Source of the DNA: a bacterium
Lineage (GTDB): Bacteria > Verrucomicrobiota > Verrucomicrobiia > Limisphaerales > RI-55
Reading direction: 5' to 3'
Length of the DNA: 64,000 bases
Assembly (NCBI GenBank): GCA_016124235.1
Contig: WGOC01000002.1
Span: forward strand, 124,001-188,000
In this document: positions 12,797 through 59,602 of the stretch, piece by piece
Layout: each line of letters begins with the position of its first letter
How positions within the stretch are numbered: the stretch's first letter is position 1
Translations under genes and position numbers: made by a program
Notes under the pieces: generated by a model
What the model was told of the DNA's origin: nothing
The model's input: only the letters and a program-made list of their open reading frames with translations
Databases searched by the model: none

Positions 12797-12920
12797 AACG
12801 TGCTGCCGGCGTCTCGCCGGCAGAAACCGTCCTACATTTCTGGTTGAAAGGCAGTCGAAACAAGTCGGTTCGTGTGGCTTTGAAAACGGGGCCTGCCAGC
12901 GGGACGCTGGCAGCACACTG
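12797..12920. repeat. Type A paired-hairpin intergenic repeat
   Basis: Two hairpins about 75 bases apart: CTGCCGGC/GCCGGCAG (12803-12810, 12816-12823) and CTGCCAGC/GCTGGCAG (12893-12900, 12906-12913). The outer ends are inverted (GTGCTGCC ... GGCAGCAC). A related element, ending in the same GCACACTG, is at 59541-59602. It lies in the gap between two convergent-looking minus-strand genes and resembles a REP/REPIN-type element. Confidence 0.65.
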
Positions 12921-41010: not shown

Positions 41011-41105
41011 TCGATGGGGAAATAATCGCAAAAAGTTTTGTGTGGCCTCTCATGTTCCCGTGGATTAGCGGCATACTGTGCCGTATTCAACCATGGCTGT
41101 CTATT

Positions 41106-41372
41106 GGGGAAACCCCGGATAAAGCTCTGATTGCAAAATTGCACTTTTCTGTCTCGGGGGGTGCAGGTGCGTTGGCGGGCCGTAAACATTGGTCGCTTTT
41201 GGGTGTCTCAGGGAAACCCCCGATGGACAAAACCCTCAAATTGCCGTTTTCTCAGGGAAAGCCCCGATAGACGACATCGGGAAAAATCGTGTAATGATGA
41301 AAGCAAGCTCACCCAAGGACGTATCGAGGTAACGGAGGAGCGAGACGGTTCAAACCAAAACCAAGAGGTTAA
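41106..41372 (+). promoter_or_regulatory. Cassette 1 upstream control region with RGGGAAASCCCSGAT boxes
   Basis: Three near-identical boxes: GGGGAAACCCCGGAT (41106-41120), AGGGAAACCCCCGAT (41210-41224) and AGGGAAAGCCCCGAT (41254-41268). The last two are 44 bases apart here and in both other cassettes. The region from about 41147 to the ATG at 41373 is nearly the same as 43938-44162 and 46760-46984. An AGAGG element just before the start codon may be the ribosome site. The boxes are likely operators for an unknown regulator. Confidence 0.6.
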
Positions 41373-41747
41373 ATGAAAAAATCATTACTACGCAGAATGG
41401 CCCCGCTCGTGGCGGGGATGTTAATACTGGGCCAATGTGGATTGGCAGTGGCGACGTACCCATATATTTACAACATTACTTGGCCGGAACCGCCCTACGA
41501 CCAATACGCAACAGTTTACGTCTACACCTGAGGAAGCGTTCCTTCAGGGTATGTAGAACCGAGGAGTAGTACGAACAACTACTATTGGTTTTTCGGAGCC
41601 ACTTACTCGGGTTACTGCTGTAATACCACGATCGACACGATGGGTGAAGATGACAGCGTGAGCGTCTATGTCTATGGCACAGACAACGACTATTCGTGGG
41701 CAACGGTTTCTCGGACCTATGGAACCCTGATCGATAACGGACCCTAG
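41373..41747 (+). pseudogene. Cassette 1 small exported protein, interrupted by in-frame TGA
   Basis: The frame starts MKKSLLRRMAPLVAGMLILGQ, the same signal peptide as the two paralogues at 44163 and 46985, and stops after 52 residues at a TGA (41529-41531). The same frame continues for 71 more codons to a TAG at 41745-41747, giving the same length as the paralogues (about 124 codons), and it keeps their features: 'SSTNNYYWF', 'SVSVYVYGTDNDYSW' and the ending 'LIDNGP'. The TGA aligns with a glycine in the 46985 copy (Y-G-G-G-V-P-P-G against T-stop-G-S-V-P-S-G). It is either a recent nonsense mutation or readthrough. The mature protein would be a beta-rich domain of about 100 residues, unknown family. 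Confidence 0.75.
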
Positions 41748-41757
41748 AATTCGACCT

Positions 41758-41787
41758 TCTCCGCCCGTTCTCAGTATCGGGCGGAGA
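41758..41787 (+). promoter_or_regulatory. Intercistronic hairpin, cassette 1
   Basis: A perfect 10-bp stem TCTCCGCCCG (41758-41767) with CGGGCGGAGA (41778-41787), 10-base loop, then GTTTT. It sits 10 bases after the small gene's stop and 11 bases before the ATG of the large gene. It may act as a partial terminator or an mRNA-processing signal. Confidence 0.7.
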
Positions 41788-41798
41788 GTTTTCGATAA

Positions 41799-43739
41799 AT
41801 GAAGCTTGCTGGAACCATCATGCTGCTGATTGCCACTCTGTCGGTAAGCGCCGACGAGTTCTCGCGGTGGACGTGGCGGGTGCCCGACCCACCAGCGGCA
41901 TTGTTCTCGAAGGTCGTCTACGCACAGGACCAGTTTGTCGCCGTGGGAGATTTGGGCTACATCATGACCTCGACCAATGGACTGAAATGGAATTTGGAGG
42001 TGTCGCCCACCACCAATCAATTGCGCAGTGTCATTTATACCGACCAGTTCGTTGCTTCCGGCGACAAGGGAACCATCATTACGTCGCCCGATGCCCGAAC
42101 CTGGCAGTTGACGACGGCGGGAGATTCACAGATCGAAGCGTTGGCCTACGGCAATGACATCTACATGGCGCTGGACAGCCGGGGCAATCTGTTCCGATCG
42201 AATGACGCGCGCCAATGGATTCCCGTTGGCGATCCCATCAACAAGGGCGGCCGCGACATGACCTTCGGCAGTGGGTTGTTCGTCACCGTGGGATTGAATG
42301 GGTTGATCGCCACGTCGACCAATGGTGTGAACTGGGTGCAAAGAACCTCCGGCACCACCGGCATCCTGTTCTCCGTGGCCTATGGCGACGGACTTTTCGT
42401 CGCCGTCGGAGCCGAAGGAACCCAAGGAGTTATCCTGACCTCCAATGACGGGATATATTGGCAACTACAATTCGTGGATAAACCGCTTTCGGATGTCACT
42501 TTCAATGATGGTGAATTCTTGATCATCGGTGGGTCCTTCATGGGGTCGGGCACGTCGTTGACGTCAAGTGATGGCATTTATTTCAACGAGCCCGCCAGTG
42601 ATCCAGGTTTGGATTGGAGCCTCACCGGAGTGACATGCGGCGGCGGAGCCTGTGTCGCCGTCGGCGCCGGAATGTTCATTTCATACGACGGCGGTCAGAC
42701 TTGGAGTGACATCACGGTCGGACCACGTGCGCCGATCTATGGATACGCGCAAAAAAATAGCACTTTGGTCGGCGTTGGTGGCAGCGGTGTCATCGTCACC
42801 ACAACAAACGGTGTGGATTTTACCAACCAGCAGATTCTGAGTGACAAGGCGTGGCTGAGCGTTTGTGCGGGTGAACCGGGATTTGCCGCTGTCGGCGTCG
42901 GAGGGAGAATCGCGTTCTCGCCGGACGGATTTGACTGGACGAATATAACCGGAGCGACACTGGGAGAACTTCCGGCGATTGCCTTTGGCGGCGGCATCTA
43001 CGTCGCGGTGGCTTGGGAAGCCGTCGGCAAGCCTTATGGCTATTTTGTCACCTCGACCAACGGACTGGACTGGGTGGAGCGACGGCCATTTGTGGACACC
43101 TATATCAATCGGACGATCACTTATGGAGCTGGCCAATTCGTGGCGGGCGGCTACGACGGCAAGATCTACACGTCGACCAATGGAATAGATTGGACCGAGC
43201 GACTGACGGGCGTCGGTGGCAACACCATTCCAGTCGCCTATTTGAACAACGGGTTCATCGCTTCGACCGGTGGCGGAATCTTGCATTCCACTGACGGGCT
43301 GACATGGACGTTCACCGGCGGGGAAACGCCCAACGCCCGGGCTATGGCCTATGGCAACGGGCTGTACGTCGCAGTCACCGGCGCGTGGCCCGACGTGCTG
43401 TGGAGTTCACCGGATGGAATCACGTGGAAACGGGAGAAGTTCGGTGCGCGTGACCTCTCGGCCGTGACCTATGCGTTCGACTCGTTTTATATTTCGGGTG
43501 CGGTTATCCAGTCGCAATCCTCGCTGATCCCAACACTGGAACATGTGACTCAAGGGAACGAGCAATTGGACGCGAGTGTGTTTGGCGAAATTGGCCGGGA
43601 TTACGAACTTCAAAGCTCGACGGATTTGAAGACGTGGCAGCACGAGAGTGATTACAACCAGGGCCAACGCATCCAACCGCTCACCCTGCCCACCGGTCCA
43701 AGCCAGAAGTTTTACCGGGTGAAACTGAAACAACCGTGA
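41799..43739 (+). CDS. Cassette 1 large exported beta-propeller protein
   Basis: 646 residues. Signal peptide MKLAGTIMLLIATLSVSADEF, then 'SRWTWRVPDPPAALFSKVVY', a start shared by all three large cassette proteins. The body is built of repeated units of the type G-x-F-V-A-V-G-x-x-G-x-I-x-T-S-x-N-G-x-x-W, as in Ycf48/BNR-type propellers. I count at least seven. The C-terminal segment 'GEIGRDYELQSSTDLKTW' followed by 'LTLPTGPSQKFYRVKLKQP' is almost the same in the three copies and resembles the module in other secreted proteins here. No enzymatic residues were identified. It is probably at the cell surface and may pair with the small protein from the same cassette. Confidence 0.85.
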   Translation: MKLAGTIMLLIATLSVSADEFSRWTWRVPDPPAALFSKVVYAQDQFVAVGDLGYIMTSTNGLKWNLEVSPTTNQLRSVIYTDQFVASGDKGTIITSPDARTWQLTTAGDSQIEALAYGNDIYMALDSRGNLFRSNDARQWIPVGDPINKGGRDMTFGSGLFVTVGLNGLIATSTNGVNWVQRTSGTTGILFSVAYGDGLFVAVGAEGTQGVILTSNDGIYWQLQFVDKPLSDVTFNDGEFLIIGGSFMGSGTSLTSSDGIYFNEPASDPGLDWSLTGVTCGGGACVAVGAGMFISYDGGQTWSDITVGPRAPIYGYAQKNSTLVGVGGSGVIVTTTNGVDFTNQQILSDKAWLSVCAGEPGFAAVGVGGRIAFSPDGFDWTNITGATLGELPAIAFGGGIYVAVAWEAVGKPYGYFVTSTNGLDWVERRPFVDTYINRTITYGAGQFVAGGYDGKIYTSTNGIDWTERLTGVGGNTIPVAYLNNGFIASTGGGILHSTDGLTWTFTGGETPNARAMAYGNGLYVAVTGAWPDVLWSSPDGITWKREKFGARDLSAVTYAFDSFYISGAVIQSQSSLIPTLEHVTQGNEQLDASVFGEIGRDYELQSSTDLKTWQHESDYNQGQRIQPLTLPTGPSQKFYRVKLKQP

Positions 43740-44162
43740 TCCAAATGCGGAATGCAGAATTCCGAATGAGGAGTTGGCAAATCGGAGTTGGATGACAGGA
43801 GACAGGAGATGGGAGTTGGGAAATCGGGCAGAAGCGTTCGCGCTAATTCGCGCAATTCGCGTAAAGCCAGGTCCCCATGTGTCAGCGATCGAAGAATAAC
43901 GATACCCTGCACCGTCATACGATGAGGTGCCGAAAAATTTCTGTCTCGGGGGTGCTGGTGCGTTGGAGGGCCGTAAACATTGGTCGCTTTTGAGTGTCTC
44001 AGGGAAAGCCCGGATGGACAAAACCCTCAAGTTGCCGTTTTTTCAGGGAAAGCCCCGATAGACGGAACGCAAAAAAATCGTGTAATGATGAAAGCAAGCT
44101 CACCCAAGGTCGTATCGGAGTACGGAGGAGCGAGACTGTTCAAACCAAAACCAAGAGGTTAT
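43740..44162. repeat. Shared 3' flank of cassette 1 and control region of cassette 2
   Basis: The first part (43740-43937) is a shared flank also present at 46571-46759 and, as its last copy, at 49386-49535; it includes short AATTCGCG units that differ in number. From 43938 to 44162 the sequence matches the cassette 1 control region, with boxes AGGGAAAGCCCGGAT (44001-44015) and AGGGAAAGCCCCGAT (44045-44059), again 44 bases apart. Long frames read through it (from 43980) are not thought to be genes. Confidence 0.75.
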
Positions 44163-44543
44163 ATGAAAAAATCATTACTACGCAGAATGGCCCCGCTCGT
44201 GGCGGGGGTGTTGTTTGTCGTGCCAGTTGTTACAGCATCGGCGGCTTACACAGGGATTAGTTGGCCGGTGTATTATCCAGATAATCAGTATTGCACTGTC
44301 TCGGTAAATTCGAGCCCGTCTTACCCGTACATTGCGCCGAAGGCTGACAGCGAAAACTACATCTGGTGGTTCGACGGTACTCGAACCTATGCATATTACT
44401 CGGACCATTATACCACTGCCACGGTCTATCCTCTAACCGTTACGAATGTTTGTGTCTACGTGTATGGCGATGACTCGTCCGGTGACGTATCGTACGCCAT
44501 CAGCGATCGTGATACAGGGGTATATATTTGGAACGGGTCCTAG
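44163..44543 (+). CDS. Cassette 2 small exported protein
   Basis: 126 residues from the ATG at 44163. Signal peptide MKKSLLRRMAPLVAGVLFVVP, same as the first 15 residues of the other two copies, then a divergent beta-rich mature domain: 'AYTGISWPVYYPDNQYCTV', 'DSENYIWWFDGTRTYAYYSD' and 'CVYVYGDDSSGDVSYAISD', ending VYIWNGS. The Y-V-Y-G-D-D-x-S-G-D/N-x-S-Y-A block and the terminal N-G-P/S are shared by the family. No cysteine pair and no anchor motif are evident. It is an unknown family. It lies 53 bases before the large gene, with the hairpin between. Confidence 0.75.
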   Translation: MKKSLLRRMAPLVAGVLFVVPVVTASAAYTGISWPVYYPDNQYCTVSVNSSPSYPYIAPKADSENYIWWFDGTRTYAYYSDHYTTATVYPLTVTNVCVYVYGDDSSGDVSYAISDRDTGVYIWNGS

Positions 44544-44559
44544 AAAAATCGATTACGTG

Positions 44560-44587
44560 CTCCCGCCTAATTTTCGTTAGGCGGGAG
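44560..44587 (+). promoter_or_regulatory. Intercistronic hairpin, cassette 2
   Basis: A perfect 11-bp stem CTCCCGCCTAA (44560-44570) with TTAGGCGGGAG (44577-44587), loop TTTTCG. It is in the same position as in cassettes 1 and 3 but of different sequence. It ends 9 bases before the ATG of the large gene, so it may also shield the ribosome site. No T-run follows. Confidence 0.75.
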
Positions 44588-44596
44588 TCGATTGCC

Positions 44597-46570
44597 ATGA
44601 GAATAACAATCACCTGCTTGCTTGGCTTGATGAGTTTGTGCCACGCCGACGAATTCTCTCGGTGGACGTGGCGGGTACCGAGTCCTCCGGCGATTCTCTG
44701 GGAGAAGGTGGCCTTTGCCGACGGCCAGTTCATTGCCGTTGGGGATCTCGGTTCTATCATGACTTCGACCAATGGCCGCGAGTGGTTCCTGGAAAACACG
44801 GTTACCACCAACCGCCTTCTGAATGTCTTCTATGGCGACCGCTACGTGGCTTCGGGCAATCGGGGAACGGTGGTGGCGTCACCGGATGCTCATGAGTGGC
44901 GGCTCGCCAGCTTTCCGAACGATCACACCCTCCTGGCCATGGCCTACGGCAACGACGTCTACGCCGCGTTCGACGTTTACGGAAATTTCTACCACTCGAC
45001 CAATGCGCTGAATTGGGAGACGGTCGACCCGCCCGCCCCAACGACCGGGGCGGACATGGCCTTTGGCGGTGATCAGTTCGTGATGGTCGGTGCTGCGGGG
45101 CTAATCATGACTTCCACGAATGGCTTGGACTGGGTGCAGCGGCAGTCGAATACGACGGGTGATTTTTTGTCGGTCGCTTTTGGAGCGGGCAAATTCGTTG
45201 CGGTGGGTAGCGAGATCGACGGCGACGGAAATGCCAACAGTTTTATTGAGACTTCCTTCAATGGAATCGATTGGTTTTTTCAGTCGTTGAACACTGATGT
45301 GTTGGTTAAAGACCTGACCTACGCCGACGGGCGTTTTGTCATTGTCGGCGGGGATGGTTACTCGGGTGGGTCCATTTCGCTGAATTCGAGTGATGGCATC
45401 TATTACAATTCAGCTGCCGGGGACAATGGTTTTGGCGGGTCAGACGTCAATGGCGTCGCGTGCGGCAATGGCGTATGTGTCGCAGTCGGACAAGGGGTCT
45501 TCAATTCAACCGACGGCGGTTTGACTTGGACGAACATCAACTCAGGACCGTTGGCGACGATTTATGACTTTGCGCAAAAGGATGGCACCGTAGTCGGGGT
45601 TGGTGACGATGGTGTGATCCTGACCACGATCGACGGCCGCGCGTGGGTCAACCAAGTTGTTGGAAGCAGCGCCGGATGGCGATCGCTTAGCGTGGGAAGC
45701 GGTGTGTTTGTGGCCGCTGGGCTGGACGGAGCCCTGGCCAGTTCCCCGGACGGACTCGGATGGACCAGTTATGCCAACGTGACTGCGGGGAACATCTGGT
45801 CGGTCGCGTACGGCGCCGGCCGGTTTGTGGCCGTGGCGTGGGAAGCGACGGGAACGCCGTACGGCTTTTTTGTCACCTCGACCAACGGGACGGACTGGGA
45901 AGTAATCAAACCGCTGGGGAATGTGGGCATAAACGCTTCAATCGCGTTCGGAGCCGGTGCGTTCGTGGTGTTCGCAAATAATGGGTACTATTACTATTCG
46001 CAAGACGGATTGACATGGACCGCGCGCAATACCGGGTACGGCCACTACGTGCTGCCCGTGTTCTATTGCAACAACGAGTTCTTGGGGGTGGAGCCATCTG
46101 TTGGAGTTTTGACTTCAAGCGACGGGCTTTCGTGGGTTCAGCATGAAACCGATATTTCTGGCGTGAGACACGTTTCCCATGGGAACGGAATCTATCTGGC
46201 TGTGGGAGATCTCCCCGGATCCGGGAAGATGTGGAGTTCGGCAGACGGGCTAAACTGGAAGACGGAAAAGATCGGTGTGACCGATCTTCGTTCGTCGATT
46301 TACGCCTACGATTCATTTTATGTTGGCGGCACAGTCCTTCAATCCGAGACTTCGCTGATCCCGTCGCTGGAACAAGTCACTCAGGGGAACGGGCAGTTGA
46401 ACGCGACCGTCTTCGGCCGGATTGGCCGGGATTACGAACTGCAAAGCTCGACGGATTTGAAGACCTGGCAGCACGAGAGCGATTACAACCAGGGCCAGCG
46501 CATCCAGCCACTCGCCCTGCCCACCGGCCCAAGCCAGAAGTTTTATCGCGTGAAACTGAAGGAACCGTGA
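44597..46570 (+). CDS. Cassette 2 large exported beta-propeller protein
   Basis: 657 residues from the ATG at 44597 (the frame is open to 44528 but that extension covers the hairpin). Signal peptide MRITITCLLGLMSLCHADEF, then 'SRWTWRVPSPPAILWEKVAF' as in cassette 1. The G-x-F-V-x-V-G-x-x-G-x-I-x-T-S-T-N-G-x-x-W repeats are the same type, but the middle of the protein has diverged from the other copies. It ends 'GRIGRDYELQSSTDLKTW' and 'PTGPSQKFYRVKLKEP'. Exported; no catalytic signature. The natural ligand and location are unknown. Confidence 0.85.
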   Translation: MRITITCLLGLMSLCHADEFSRWTWRVPSPPAILWEKVAFADGQFIAVGDLGSIMTSTNGREWFLENTVTTNRLLNVFYGDRYVASGNRGTVVASPDAHEWRLASFPNDHTLLAMAYGNDVYAAFDVYGNFYHSTNALNWETVDPPAPTTGADMAFGGDQFVMVGAAGLIMTSTNGLDWVQRQSNTTGDFLSVAFGAGKFVAVGSEIDGDGNANSFIETSFNGIDWFFQSLNTDVLVKDLTYADGRFVIVGGDGYSGGSISLNSSDGIYYNSAAGDNGFGGSDVNGVACGNGVCVAVGQGVFNSTDGGLTWTNINSGPLATIYDFAQKDGTVVGVGDDGVILTTIDGRAWVNQVVGSSAGWRSLSVGSGVFVAAGLDGALASSPDGLGWTSYANVTAGNIWSVAYGAGRFVAVAWEATGTPYGFFVTSTNGTDWEVIKPLGNVGINASIAFGAGAFVVFANNGYYYYSQDGLTWTARNTGYGHYVLPVFYCNNEFLGVEPSVGVLTSSDGLSWVQHETDISGVRHVSHGNGIYLAVGDLPGSGKMWSSADGLNWKTEKIGVTDLRSSIYAYDSFYVGGTVLQSETSLIPSLEQVTQGNGQLNATVFGRIGRDYELQSSTDLKTWQHESDYNQGQRIQPLALPTGPSQKFYRVKLKEP

Positions 46571-46984
46571 TCCGAATGCGGAGTGCAGAATTCTGAATGA
46601 GGAGTTGGCAAATCGGAGATGGATGACAGGAGACAGGAAATGGGAGTTGGGAAATCGGGCAGAAGCATTCGCGCTAATTCGCGTAAAGCCAGGTCCCCAT
46701 GTGTCAGCGATCGTAGAATAACGATACCCTGCACCGTCATACGATGAGGTGCCGAAAAATTTCTGTCTCGGGGGGTGCAGGTGCGTTGGCGGGCCGTAAA
46801 CATTGGTCGCTTTTGGGTGTCTCAGGGAAAGCCCGGATGGACAAAACCCTCAAGTTGCCGTTTTTTCAGGGAAAGCCCCGATAGACGGAACGCAAAGAAA
46901 TCGTGTAATGATGAAAGCAAGCTCACCCAAGGTCGTATCGGAGTATGGAGGAGCGAAACAAACAAACCAAAACCAAGAGGTTAA
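46571..46984. repeat. Shared 3' flank of cassette 2 and control region of cassette 3
   Basis: Flank 46571-46759, then the control region 46760-46984 with boxes at 46824-46838 and 46868-46882, 44 bases apart. Nearly identical to 43740-44162. The frame from 46803 to 46988 is a by-product of the repeat and ends across the true ATG at 46985. Confidence 0.75.
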
Positions 46985-47356
46985 ATGAAAAAATCATTAC
47001 TACGCAGAATCGCCCCGCTCGTGGCGGGGATCTTGTTGGCGGGTCAAACGTTGAGCGTGTTGGCAACATATCCGTATATTGAATCCATCACCAAGGGAAG
47101 CACCTCGGCGAGTGCTAGCGTTGCATATGGTGGCGGAGTACCACCGGGTCACACAGGACCGCGTGATCCAGGCACCTACGGAAATTACTACTGGTGGGTC
47201 GACCAAAACTTTTACACCTCAAACACGCTCAGCATTTCGATTCCATACGGAACAACAAACGTGAATATTTACGTTTATCCCGACGACCTAAGTGGCAACT
47301 ACTCCTACGCGTATGTAAACGATGTTTGGGGAACTTACATCTACAACGGGCCGTAG
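46985..47356 (+). CDS. Cassette 3 small exported protein
   Basis: 123 residues. Signal peptide MKKSLLRRIAPLVAGILLAGQ, then 'LSVLATYPYIESITKGSTSA', a Gly/Pro-rich stretch (YGGGVPPGHTGPRDPG), 'NYYWWVDQNFYTSNTL', 'VNIYVYPDDLSGNYSYAYVN' and the ending IYNGP. It is the intact relative of the interrupted copy at 41373 (shared T-Y-P-Y-I). Exported, unknown family. Its downstream partner gene is itself interrupted, so this small protein may have outlived its partner. Confidence 0.75.
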   Translation: MKKSLLRRIAPLVAGILLAGQTLSVLATYPYIESITKGSTSASASVAYGGGVPPGHTGPRDPGTYGNYYWWVDQNFYTSNTLSISIPYGTTNVNIYVYPDDLSGNYSYAYVNDVWGTYIYNGP

Positions 47357-47378
47357 TAAGCAACCAGGTGGACTCGCA

Positions 47379-47410
47379 AATTCCCGGGAGCGCCAATGCT
47401 CCCGGGAATT
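47379..47410 (+). promoter_or_regulatory. Intercistronic hairpin, cassette 3
   Basis: A perfect 13-bp stem AATTCCCGGGAGC (47379-47391) with GCTCCCGGGAATT (47398-47410), loop GCCAAT. It lies 22 bases after the small gene's stop and 16 bases before the ATG of the large gene. The sequence is unrelated to the hairpins of cassettes 1 and 2. Confidence 0.75.
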
Positions 47411-47426: not shown

Positions 47427-49385
47427 ATGAATTCACTCCTTACAACCTTGCTGGCGGTGGCATTTGTGTTCGAGTTGCGCGCAGACGAGTTCTCTCAATG
47501 GGAATGGCTGGTGCCTACTCCAGTTGGCGATCACCTGGCTGCGATCACATTTGATGGCACGCGATTTATAGCCGTCGGCGAGATGGGAGTGATACTGACA
47601 TCGACGAACGGCGCTGACTGGCGTCTGACGTACACAGACACCACGAATAAACTGTGGGGCGTTACTGTCGGAGATGCCACGGTACTCGCTTATGGGGACA
47701 ACTCCACCGTGCTGGCCTCCAGCGGTGACGCGACGACTTGGAGATCCGTTGAGACTGGCTCCGACACGGCGATTCACGCATTGACATACGGCAACAACAC
47801 GTACGTCGCCTTGGATTTCTCGTGGCGCGTTTTTATTTCGACGAATGCCGACACTGGATGGCATGAGACGTTGACGCCTCCGGACGGCGCGGCAAATGAC
47901 ATTGAGTTTGGCGACGGAAAGTTCGTCGCGGTTGGTTGGAATGGCCTGATCGCGACGTCAAGCGATGGTGTGGGTTGGACCACTCAAGTTTCTGGTACCG
48001 ATGGTCCAATTTGGGCCGTAACTTATGGCGATGGCAAATGGGTGGCTGTGGGAGGTGAAGAGGATACTGGCTTCATCCTCACTTCGTTCAATGGAACTGA
48101 CTGGTTCCTGCAACTAACGGATACGCCGATGTACTCAGTGACATACGGTCCCTACGGCTTCATCGCCACCGGCGGCGATGTCATGGGATCCGGTGTATCC
48201 ATGAATTCATCGGATGGAATTTATTTCTCCGGTGGCGAGCCGGGCGGATCGGGCCTTTCATCGGTGCCCGCCGGCGTCGCTTGCGGCAATGGTGTTTGTG
48301 TTGCAGTGGGCGGGCCGGGACAAATTTGGACGACAACCGACGGGTCGGCTTGGGTATCCCAGTCCTCTGGCCAGGATCTGACCGTGACGTCACTGGTTTC
48401 CAACGGCGCAAAACTGGTTGGCGTCGGTGGAAAAGGCACCATCGTGACAAGTAGTGACGGACTTCAATTTGAGTCACACATCTATTCGACGAATGAAAAC
48501 TATTTCAAAGTGATCGCCACCGATCACGGGTTCGTAGCAGCGGGCGCAAACGGTATCATTCGGACATCAGCCGATGGGACAGATTGGAATTTGGAGAATA
48601 CCAGCTCGGATGCGACTCTCAAGGATCTTGCCTTCGGCGGCGGCAAGGTTGTAGCGATAGGATGGAACGCATCAGGCAAGCCCTATGGTCAGTTTCTGGT
48701 GCGTGATTCAAATGCCGATTGGCAGGCGGTATGGCCAGCTGCGGACGAATTCATCAATTCCTCGATCGCGTTCGGCAATGGCCATTTTGTGGCGTCAGGA
48801 TATTATGGCGAAGTCTGGATTTCCGATGATGGAACTCAGTGGCAAAAGTCGCAAACGGGAATCGGTGAGACGATCCTGCCCATCCAGTTCATAAACGGAC
48901 AGTTTATCGGACTCACCTCCGGCTCTGTCGGCTTTTCCAACGACGGTGTAAATTGGAACTTTACGACCACGACGCCACCAGCGGTCAAACAGTTGGCATT
49001 CGGCAATGGCCTGTATATCGCAGCGGGTTGGAATCGTGGCGGGATTGAAATCTCCGAGGATTGAATTCATTGGACGAGTCGACCGATGAAGACGCTCAGC
49101 CTCACCTCGGCGGCCTACTTTAGAGATTCATTCTATGTGGCAGGGTTCATCCTGAAGTCGACTTCGTCACTGATTCCGACGATCGAAGATTTTGGGCGAA
49201 AGGGCAACGAAGTGAGCTTTCAAATGTTCGGCCGGATCGGCCGGGACTACGAACTGCAAAGCTCGACGGATCTGAAGACCTGGCAGCACGAGAGCGATTA
49301 CAACCAGGGCCAGCGCATCCAGCCGCTCACCCTGCCCACCGGTCCAAGCCAGAAGTTTTATCGCGTGAAACTGAAGGAACCGTGA
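47427..49385 (+). pseudogene. Cassette 3 large beta-propeller protein, interrupted by in-frame TGA
   Basis: Starts MNSLLTTLLAVAFVFELRADEF, then 'SQWEWLVPTPVGDHLAAI' and the same propeller repeats (RFIAVGEMGVILTSTNG). The frame stops at a TGA at 49062-49064 after 545 residues. The same frame resumes directly (I-H-W-T-S-R-P, then a Met at 49086) and runs to 49385 with the family C-terminus 'GRIGRDYELQSSTDLKTW ... KFYRVKLKEP'. In the intact cassette 1 gene the equivalent codon is GGA (S-P-D-G-I-T-W against S-E-D-stop-I-H-W). Total length with the stop read through is 652, matching its paralogues (646 and 657). Either a nonsense mutation, so the C-terminal module is lost, or readthrough. Confidence 0.75.
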
Positions 49386-51332: not shown

Positions 51333-52160
51333 ATGAACGAAATCATGGTCGTTGTGGGGCCGGCCGGCATGGAGCGGGAGGCCATCCAGCGGAGCGTCGA
51401 GATGACCGGGGAATTTACGGCCGTCGCGGTATCAACCCTCAGGGAACTCACCAGGCGGAAATTCGATATGAGCCGGATCACCTGCATCCTCGAGATGTAC
51501 GACGCGAAGACCAATTCGTCGGCCGGCAAATTCACCGGCCGGTTATCGGTCCCCCGCATGTTGGTGGAAACCAGCGACGTGCCCGATACCTGGCTGATCG
51601 AAGGACTGCGGAGCGGAGCGGTCGCGGTGATTGCGTGGCCCTGTCTGGCAAACGAACTGCGCGCGGCACTAAAAGCGGCCCGACAAGGCGAGGCGTATCT
51701 CACTCCAAAAGCCGGCGGGCTGCTGGTAAGCGGGATGAGGAATGGCCGCCCACCAAGGTTGTGGGAACTGGTGTTGACGCCGCGTGAACGACAGGTTGCG
51801 CAACGACTGGCCGACGGCGAGATGAACAAGGAAATTGCCCGGACGTTGCGAATCTCCGAACGCACCGTCGAAAGCCACGTCACAAACATCTACCGCAAGC
51901 TCCGTGTCCAGTCGCGAGCCGAGGCCGCCGTGCGAATCAACCAGAAGCCCAAGGCGCCGCCGTCAGCCGGGCCGTTGACGGACGGCGAACAGCAGGTCGT
52001 CGCGGCCATTTTGCAGGGACACGGCAACGACGCCATCGCCGACCGGCTGCAGATTTCCCGACATACGGTGGAGACCCATCTGACGCACGCCTACCAGAAA
52101 TTGGGCGTTCGCAGTCGAACGGAGCTGATCGCCCATCAGGCTGAGTCAGCCAAGAAGTAA
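51333..52160 (+). CDS. Atypical response-regulator-like protein with two LuxR HTH domains
   Basis: 275 residues. The N-terminal domain looks like a receiver fold (MNEIMVVVGPAGMEREAIQ ... 'LIEGLRSGAVAVIAWPCLANEL') but lacks the acidic pair, and the phospho-acceptor strand reads I-T-C-I-L-E-M, so Glu54 stands where Asp is expected. Two LuxR-type HTH domains follow in tandem: LTPRERQVAQRLADGEMNKE ... SERTVESHVTNIYRKL (about 148-200) and LTDGEQQVVAAILQGHGNDA ... SRHTVETHLTHAYQKL (about 215-268). A partly deleted copy of the gene is at 54515-54725. It may bind DNA without phosphorylation control. Targets are unknown; the poly-G run sits 79 bases before the start. Confidence 0.8.
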   Translation: MNEIMVVVGPAGMEREAIQRSVEMTGEFTAVAVSTLRELTRRKFDMSRITCILEMYDAKTNSSAGKFTGRLSVPRMLVETSDVPDTWLIEGLRSGAVAVIAWPCLANELRAALKAARQGEAYLTPKAGGLLVSGMRNGRPPRLWELVLTPRERQVAQRLADGEMNKEIARTLRISERTVESHVTNIYRKLRVQSRAEAAVRINQKPKAPPSAGPLTDGEQQVVAAILQGHGNDAIADRLQISRHTVETHLTHAYQKLGVRSRTELIAHQAESAKK

Positions 52161-59540: not shown

Positions 59541-59602
59541 AGGGTGCTGCCGGCTGCCAGCCGGCAGATCCAAACTTCCGGCAGGCTGCCGGAAGCACAC
59601 TG
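59541..59602. repeat. Type A paired-hairpin repeat, second copy
   Basis: CTGCCGGC-TGCCA-GCCGGCAG (59547-59554, 59560-59567), then the palindrome CTTCCGGCAG-G-CTGCCGGAAG (59575-59595), ending GCACACTG as in the copy at 12797-12920. It lies in the gap behind xth. Confidence 0.65.

What the first reader, a model, noticed from the sequence alone, without database searches (positions are those of the whole stretch)
41758..47410. Perfect intercistronic hairpins of unrelated sequence at the same place in all three cassettes
Stems of 10, 11 and 13 bp (41758-41787, 44560-44587, 47379-47410) lie 10-22 bases after the small gene's stop and 9-16 bases before the large gene's start. The sequences are unrelated, so the structure rather than the sequence is kept. 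That implies a function in RNA: partial termination, mRNA processing, or shielding the ribosome site, to set the ratio of small to large protein.
Basis: partly seen in the sequence, partly recalled or inferred. Interest (0 to 1): 0.8.

Follow-up and report, generated by a model that had tools for sequence, protein, structure and literature searches.

The report
RNA hairpins between paired secreted-protein genes
Three neighbouring two-gene units in a little-known bacterium (probably Verrucomicrobiota) each carry a perfect hairpin between a small and a large secreted-protein gene; the hairpins are real, lie far outside chance and are mostly not transcription stop signals, and they most likely keep the small protein's message stable so that more of it is made, a device already known from other bacteria.

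Summary
Perfect stems of 10, 11 and 13 bp lie exactly where stated, and dinucleotide shuffles of the three spacers match them in 16, 2 and 1 of 20,000 trials. In about 0.85 Mb of the same genome the typical same-strand gap of 30-110 nt has a best stem of 4 bp; only two of 111 reach 9 bp. The cassettes are only 40-60% identical in this part, so perfect pairing looks selected.

Shielding by Shine-Dalgarno pairing is doubtful: two stems contain GGAG, the third does not, and the sampled genome shows no Shine-Dalgarno signal. The one close parallel in the sample is the type VI secretion operon: a 13-bp stem after hcp, 11 nt before tagJ, without a U-tract, kept in two other genomes with compensatory changes. 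A stem loop after hcp4 in Yersinia raises hcp4 mRNA and is not a terminator (PMC12503267).

Best reading: 3'-protective (SRPS-type) stem-loops favouring the small protein. Two genes carry in-frame TGA codons.

The parts
41373..41747 (+). small secreted-protein gene, cassette 1; in-frame TGA at 41529-41531
41758..41787 (+). hairpin 1: 10-bp perfect stem, loop 10, followed by GTTTTCGA
41799..43739 (+). large secreted beta-propeller gene, cassette 1 (an in-frame TAA directly precedes the ATG, which fixes the start)
44163..44543 (+). small secreted-protein gene, cassette 2
44560..44587 (+). hairpin 2: 11-bp perfect stem, loop 6; no U-tract; GGGAG in the 3' arm
44597..46570 (+). large secreted beta-propeller gene, cassette 2
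46985..47356 (+). small secreted-protein gene, cassette 3
47379..47410 (+). hairpin 3: 13-bp perfect stem, loop 6; no U-tract; no Shine-Dalgarno core at usable spacing
47427..49385 (+). large secreted beta-propeller gene, cassette 3; in-frame TGA at 49062-49064
41208..41267 (.). paired palindromes TCAGGG-N4-CCCNGA in the leader of cassette 1 (44 bp apart)
43999..44058 (.). paired palindromes in the leader of cassette 2
46822..46881 (.). paired palindromes in the leader of cassette 3

Best explanation
Each cassette is probably transcribed as a small-large bicistronic mRNA (inferred). The intercistronic stem-loop acts as a 3'-protective barrier: after an endonuclease cuts in or beyond the large gene, 3'-to-5' exonucleases degrade the distal part and stall at the GC-rich stem, so the small-gene message survives and the small secreted protein is made in excess over the large beta-propeller protein. 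Because only stem stability matters, the sequence is free to change. The stem begins 10 nt or more after the stop codon, which should be just outside a terminating ribosome (general knowledge of footprints). A stem 9-16 nt before the large gene's ATG may also slow initiation there, pushing the ratio the same way. Shown: the stems, their statistics, their placement and the lack of U-tracts in two of three. Inferred: co-transcription, cleavage, stabilisation and the ratio.
For: Perfect stems well outside chance in a region diverged to 40-60% identity. Core energies -19.6, -20.4 and -24.4 kcal/mol, similar to the -23.45 kcal/mol mean around 3' intergenic processing sites in Clostridium cellulolyticum, where 28 of 33 such stem-loops lack a U run (PMC4423207). 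Hairpins 2 and 3 meet the published 'stabiliser' rule of U content at most 5 and U-tail at most 3 (PMC8219983; T counts). In the same genome a U-tract-less 13-bp stem sits 39 nt after hcp and 11 nt before tagJ, and is kept in two other genomes with two pairs changed on both sides. In Yersinia, mutating the stem loop after hcp4 lowered only hcp4 mRNA, which argues for a 3'-protective loop and against a terminator (PMC12503267). RNase E/G and PNPase-type domains occur in the congener and other members of the order.
Against: No transcript data. RNase E/G and PNPase were not found in this assembly itself, although it is only about 56% complete. Stem-to-start spacing is tighter (9-16 nt, including the hcp cases) than stop-to-stem spacing (10-39 nt), which simple 3' protection does not require and which hints at an effect on the downstream start. 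Hairpin 1 has a short U run. That the cell needs more small than large protein is an assumption. The three cassettes are paralogs, not three independent witnesses.
Confidence: 0.5

Rival explanations
1. The stem controls translation of the large gene: a stable helix 9-16 nt before the ATG blocks the 30S subunit, in cassettes 1 and 2 also by pairing a GGAG motif, so the large protein is made little unless the stem is opened.
For: Stem-to-ATG spacing is narrow: 11, 9, 16, and 11, 10, 9 in the hcp-tagJ cases. GGAG lies in the 3' arm of stems 1 and 2.
Against: Cassette 3 and the hcp stems have no Shine-Dalgarno core in the arm at usable spacing. Constrained starts in the genome sample show no Shine-Dalgarno enrichment (17 of 223 against 15 in controls), and some Verrucomicrobia are described as SD-scarce (PMC10783764). 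A ribosome stopped at the small gene's stop should not reach the stem (general knowledge).
Confidence: 0.2
2. Partial intrinsic terminator (attenuator): a fraction of RNA polymerases stop at the stem, giving more small-gene than large-gene mRNA.
For: GC-rich stems just after a stop codon; hairpin 1 is followed by GTTTTCGA.
Against: Hairpins 2 and 3 have only 3 and 1 T in the next 8 bases against a background mean of 1.7; about half of the stems at convergent gene ends in this genome have 4-6. The terminator scan lists none of the three.
Confidence: 0.13
3. The folded spacer brings the small gene's stop close to the large gene's start and helps terminating ribosomes re-initiate.
For: Minimum-energy folds close most of the stop-start spacer in all three.
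Against: The outer helices are no better than shuffled flanks give (P 0.17-0.53).
Confidence: 0.07
4. DNA-level element: a recombination or mobile-element site used in swapping cassette contents.
For: A near-identical block of roughly 0.8 kb alternates with divergent 2.3-kb interiors, so exchange or gene conversion has probably happened.
Against: The stems lie inside the divergent interior, not at the borders of the homogenised blocks, and share no sequence; the same layout recurs after hcp, where no cassette exists.
Confidence: 0.04

Closest known systems
Selective RNA processing and stabilisation (SRPS) stem-loops, e.g. cip-cel operon of Clostridium (Ruminiclostridium) cellulolyticum (PMC4423207, PMC8219983)
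   Same: Stable intra-operonic stem-loop at the 3' end of the upstream gene, mostly without a U-tract, similar folding energy, sequence not fixed
   Different: No processing sites or transcript ratios are known here; different phylum; stem unusually close to the next start codon
Stem loop after hcp4 in the Yersinia pseudotuberculosis T6SS4 operon (PMC12503267)
   Same: Hairpin directly after a small secreted-protein gene inside an operon; experimentally raises the upstream mRNA and is not a terminator
   Different: The Yersinia genes are T6SS genes; the cassette proteins are unrelated. The hcp-tagJ hairpin of this same genome is the direct counterpart
Intercistronic hairpin of the Rhodobacter puf operon (Chen et al. 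1988, as cited in PMC12503267; details from own knowledge)
   Same: Hairpin between small-protein genes and large-protein genes that shields the upstream mRNA and sets the ratio
   Different: One conserved locus; here three tandem paralogous units with different stems
Intrinsic (rho-independent) terminators
   Same: GC-rich perfect stem after a stop codon
   Different: U-tract absent in two of three

Membership tests
SRPS stabiliser stem-loop | Stable stem-loop inside an operon at the 3' end of the upstream gene | tested here: met
   that each small-large pair is one operon is inferred from spacing and strand
SRPS stabiliser stem-loop | U content <=5 and no U tail longer than 3 (rule in PMC8219983) | tested here: inconclusive
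   met by hairpins 2 and 3; hairpin 1 has UUUU one base after the stem
SRPS stabiliser stem-loop | Endonucleolytic processing site next to the stem | not testable with these tools
   needs differential RNA-seq or 5'/3' end mapping
SRPS stabiliser stem-loop | Upstream transcript more abundant than downstream; downstream gene still transcribed | not testable with these tools
   no expression data for this organism
SRPS stabiliser stem-loop | Processing enzymes present | tested here: inconclusive
   RNase E/G and RNase PH domains found in the congener and other relatives, not in this ~56% complete assembly
Intrinsic terminator | U-tract directly after the stem | tested here: not met
   hairpins 2 and 3: 3 and 1 T in 8; hairpin 1 borderline with 4
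Shine-Dalgarno-sequestering hairpin | SD of the downstream gene paired in the stem | tested here: not met
   GGAG paired in hairpins 1 (spacer 12) and 2 (spacer 9) but none in hairpin 3; no SD signal in the genome sample
Known Rfam family | Match at gathering score | tested here: not met
   none in the window

The most novel reading that the evidence does not exclude
In a genome that makes little use of Shine-Dalgarno sites, a sequence-free stem placed about 10 nt before the start codon of the second gene serves as a general ratio-setting element for two-gene secreted-protein units (the cassettes and hcp-tagJ), acting at the downstream start codon as well as, or instead of, by 3' protection.
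Probability: 0.15. Interest if true: 0.6.

Novelty: new member of a known kind. Interest (0 to 1): 0.35.

Why it matters
If true, it would extend stem-loop control of operon stoichiometry to a poorly studied lineage of bacteria and show it serving both type VI secretion (hcp) and an uncharacterised secreted pair in one genome. It gives a concrete, sequence-free signature (perfect stem of at least 10 bp, no U-tract, about 10 nt before the next start) that can be scanned for in genomes that make little use of Shine-Dalgarno sites.

Tried and rejected
Homologs of the small protein by single sequence (97 genomes) and by profile (320 genomes of the order): no convincing one besides the three copies (three marginal hits at E 0.003-0.01 did not return). 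Homologs of the large protein: only distant beta-propellers, without a small-gene partner in the two loci read in detail; the 17-bp stem upstream of one of them (L040) is about 100 nt from the start and close to a T run, so terminator-like. Outer helix bringing stop and start together: looked striking, rejected by flank shuffling. Hairpin after hcp as a phylum-wide rule: rejected; tagJ loci elsewhere show no comparable stem where the spacer could be read, and three with hcp-like upstream genes have short spacers or overlap. Rfam with a relaxed threshold on the leader and spacer of cassette 3: nothing useful. Structure of the small protein: model too poor (mean pLDDT 38).

Full report
What was checked. 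They are three of only five perfect stems of at least 10 bp in 64 kb, where a first-order Markov simulation expects about 1.3. Dinucleotide shuffles of each stop-to-start spacer reach the observed stem in 16, 2 and 1 of 20,000 trials. Against about 854 kb of the same genome, 111 same-strand gaps of 30-110 nt have a best perfect stem that peaks at 4 bp; only two reach 9 bp or more. So the feature is real and stands apart from the genome's ordinary gene gaps.

Are the sequences unrelated? Across the three cassettes the last part of the large gene, the flank, the leader and the signal-peptide codons are about 80-98% identical, while the 2.3 kb between them is about 40-60% identical. The stems lie in that divergent part. 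Cassettes 1 and 2 share CTCC(C)GCC / GGC(G)GGAG at the base of the stem, which may be a paired insertion since a common ancestor, but the alignment is ambiguous. Perfect pairing at this divergence is best explained by selection on structure. The outer helices in the predicted folds do not survive a flank-shuffling control.

Surroundings. Small genes: signal peptide plus roughly 95-100 residues, no Pfam or NCBIfam family. Large genes: secreted beta-propeller repeats, DUF6242 over its cut-off in one copy, predicted fold propeller-like with moderate confidence. The small gene of cassette 1 has an in-frame TGA (41529-41531) and the large gene of cassette 3 has one (49062-49064); other genes here end in TGA, so it is a stop in this genome. 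Two of three cassettes thus carry a broken gene or a sequencing error. The assembly is about 56% complete in 47 contigs, and no homolog of the small gene was found in 320 genomes of the order, so between-species covariation of these stems cannot be counted.

Termination. At convergent gene ends of this genome 10 of 18 stems of at least 8 bp are followed by 4-6 T in 8 bases; the genome mean is 1.7. The cassettes have 4, 3 and 1. Hairpin 1 could terminate weakly; hairpins 2 and 3 do not look like intrinsic terminators.

Ribosome site. The small genes carry GAGG 4 nt before ATG. The large genes have GGAG within the stem at spacers 12 and 9 (cassettes 1 and 2) and nothing usable in cassette 3. In 223 genes with constrained starts, Shine-Dalgarno cores are no more frequent than in a within-gene control (17 against 15). 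Start calls are approximate, but some Verrucomicrobia have been described as SD-scarce (PMC10783764). Shine-Dalgarno sequestration therefore cannot be the shared function, although a stem close to the start may hinder the ribosome physically.

The parallel. Of the two other gaps with long stems, one (L077, 14 bp) has a T-rich tail. The other lies in a type VI secretion operon, 39 nt after hcp and 11 nt before tagJ, with 13 bp and no U-tract. The congener G001 and the more distant G091 keep it at 33-34 nt after hcp and 9-10 nt before tagJ, with two base pairs changed on both sides and all cells paired; with three sequences the shuffling control is only suggestive (28 of 500 for the covariation score). 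In G091 a T-rich stretch follows the stem. It is not a phylum-wide rule. Hcp is needed in bulk (general knowledge), and in Yersinia pseudotuberculosis mutation of the stem loop after hcp4 lowered hcp4 mRNA alone, which led its authors to propose 3' protection and not termination (PMC12503267). Stem-loops of this type, mostly without U runs, mark highly expressed upstream genes in Clostridium cellulolyticum operons (PMC4423207), and published rules class U-poor stems as stabilisers (PMC8219983).

Conclusion. The most likely role is 3' protection of the small-gene message, giving more small than large protein (0.5). An effect on initiation of the large gene is the main rival and may act together with it; the narrow stem-to-start spacing (9-16 nt in six cases, against 10-39 nt from the stop) favours some role there. 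This is a known kind of element in a new place, not a new kind of system. That the organism belongs to Verrucomicrobiota is inferred from the gene content and from named relatives of the large protein, not from a marker-gene placement.

Noticed in passing
window 41208-41267, 43999-44058, 46822-46881 (degenerate third copy at 41104): Paired palindromes TCAGGG-N4-CCCNGA(T), 44 bp apart, upstream of each small gene; all six exact genome-wide matches are these. They look like a dedicated operator or leader element.
   Followed up: partly
window 41529-41531 and 49062-49064: In-frame TGA in the small gene of cassette 1 and the large gene of cassette 3: broken genes or sequencing errors.
   Followed up: partly
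window ~43550-44220 and ~46380-47040: Homogenised blocks (about 80-98% identical: end of large gene, flank, leader, signal peptide) alternate with 40-60% identical interiors, suggesting gene conversion or cassette exchange.
   Followed up: partly
L058 4797-4826 (- strand); L100; L102: Perfect stem between hcp and tagJ in a type VI secretion operon, kept in three genomes with compensatory changes.
   Followed up: yes
whole genome sample: No Shine-Dalgarno enrichment before constrained starts (17 of 223 against 15 in controls).
   Followed up: partly
window 51333-52160 (+): Regulator with two LuxR-type helix-turn-helix domains near the cassettes; a candidate, untested, for the palindromes.
   Followed up: no
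window 12803-12913 and 59547-59595: Two places with a pair of similar 9-bp stems (CTGCC(G/A)GC-type), possibly a dispersed REP-like repeat.
   Followed up: no
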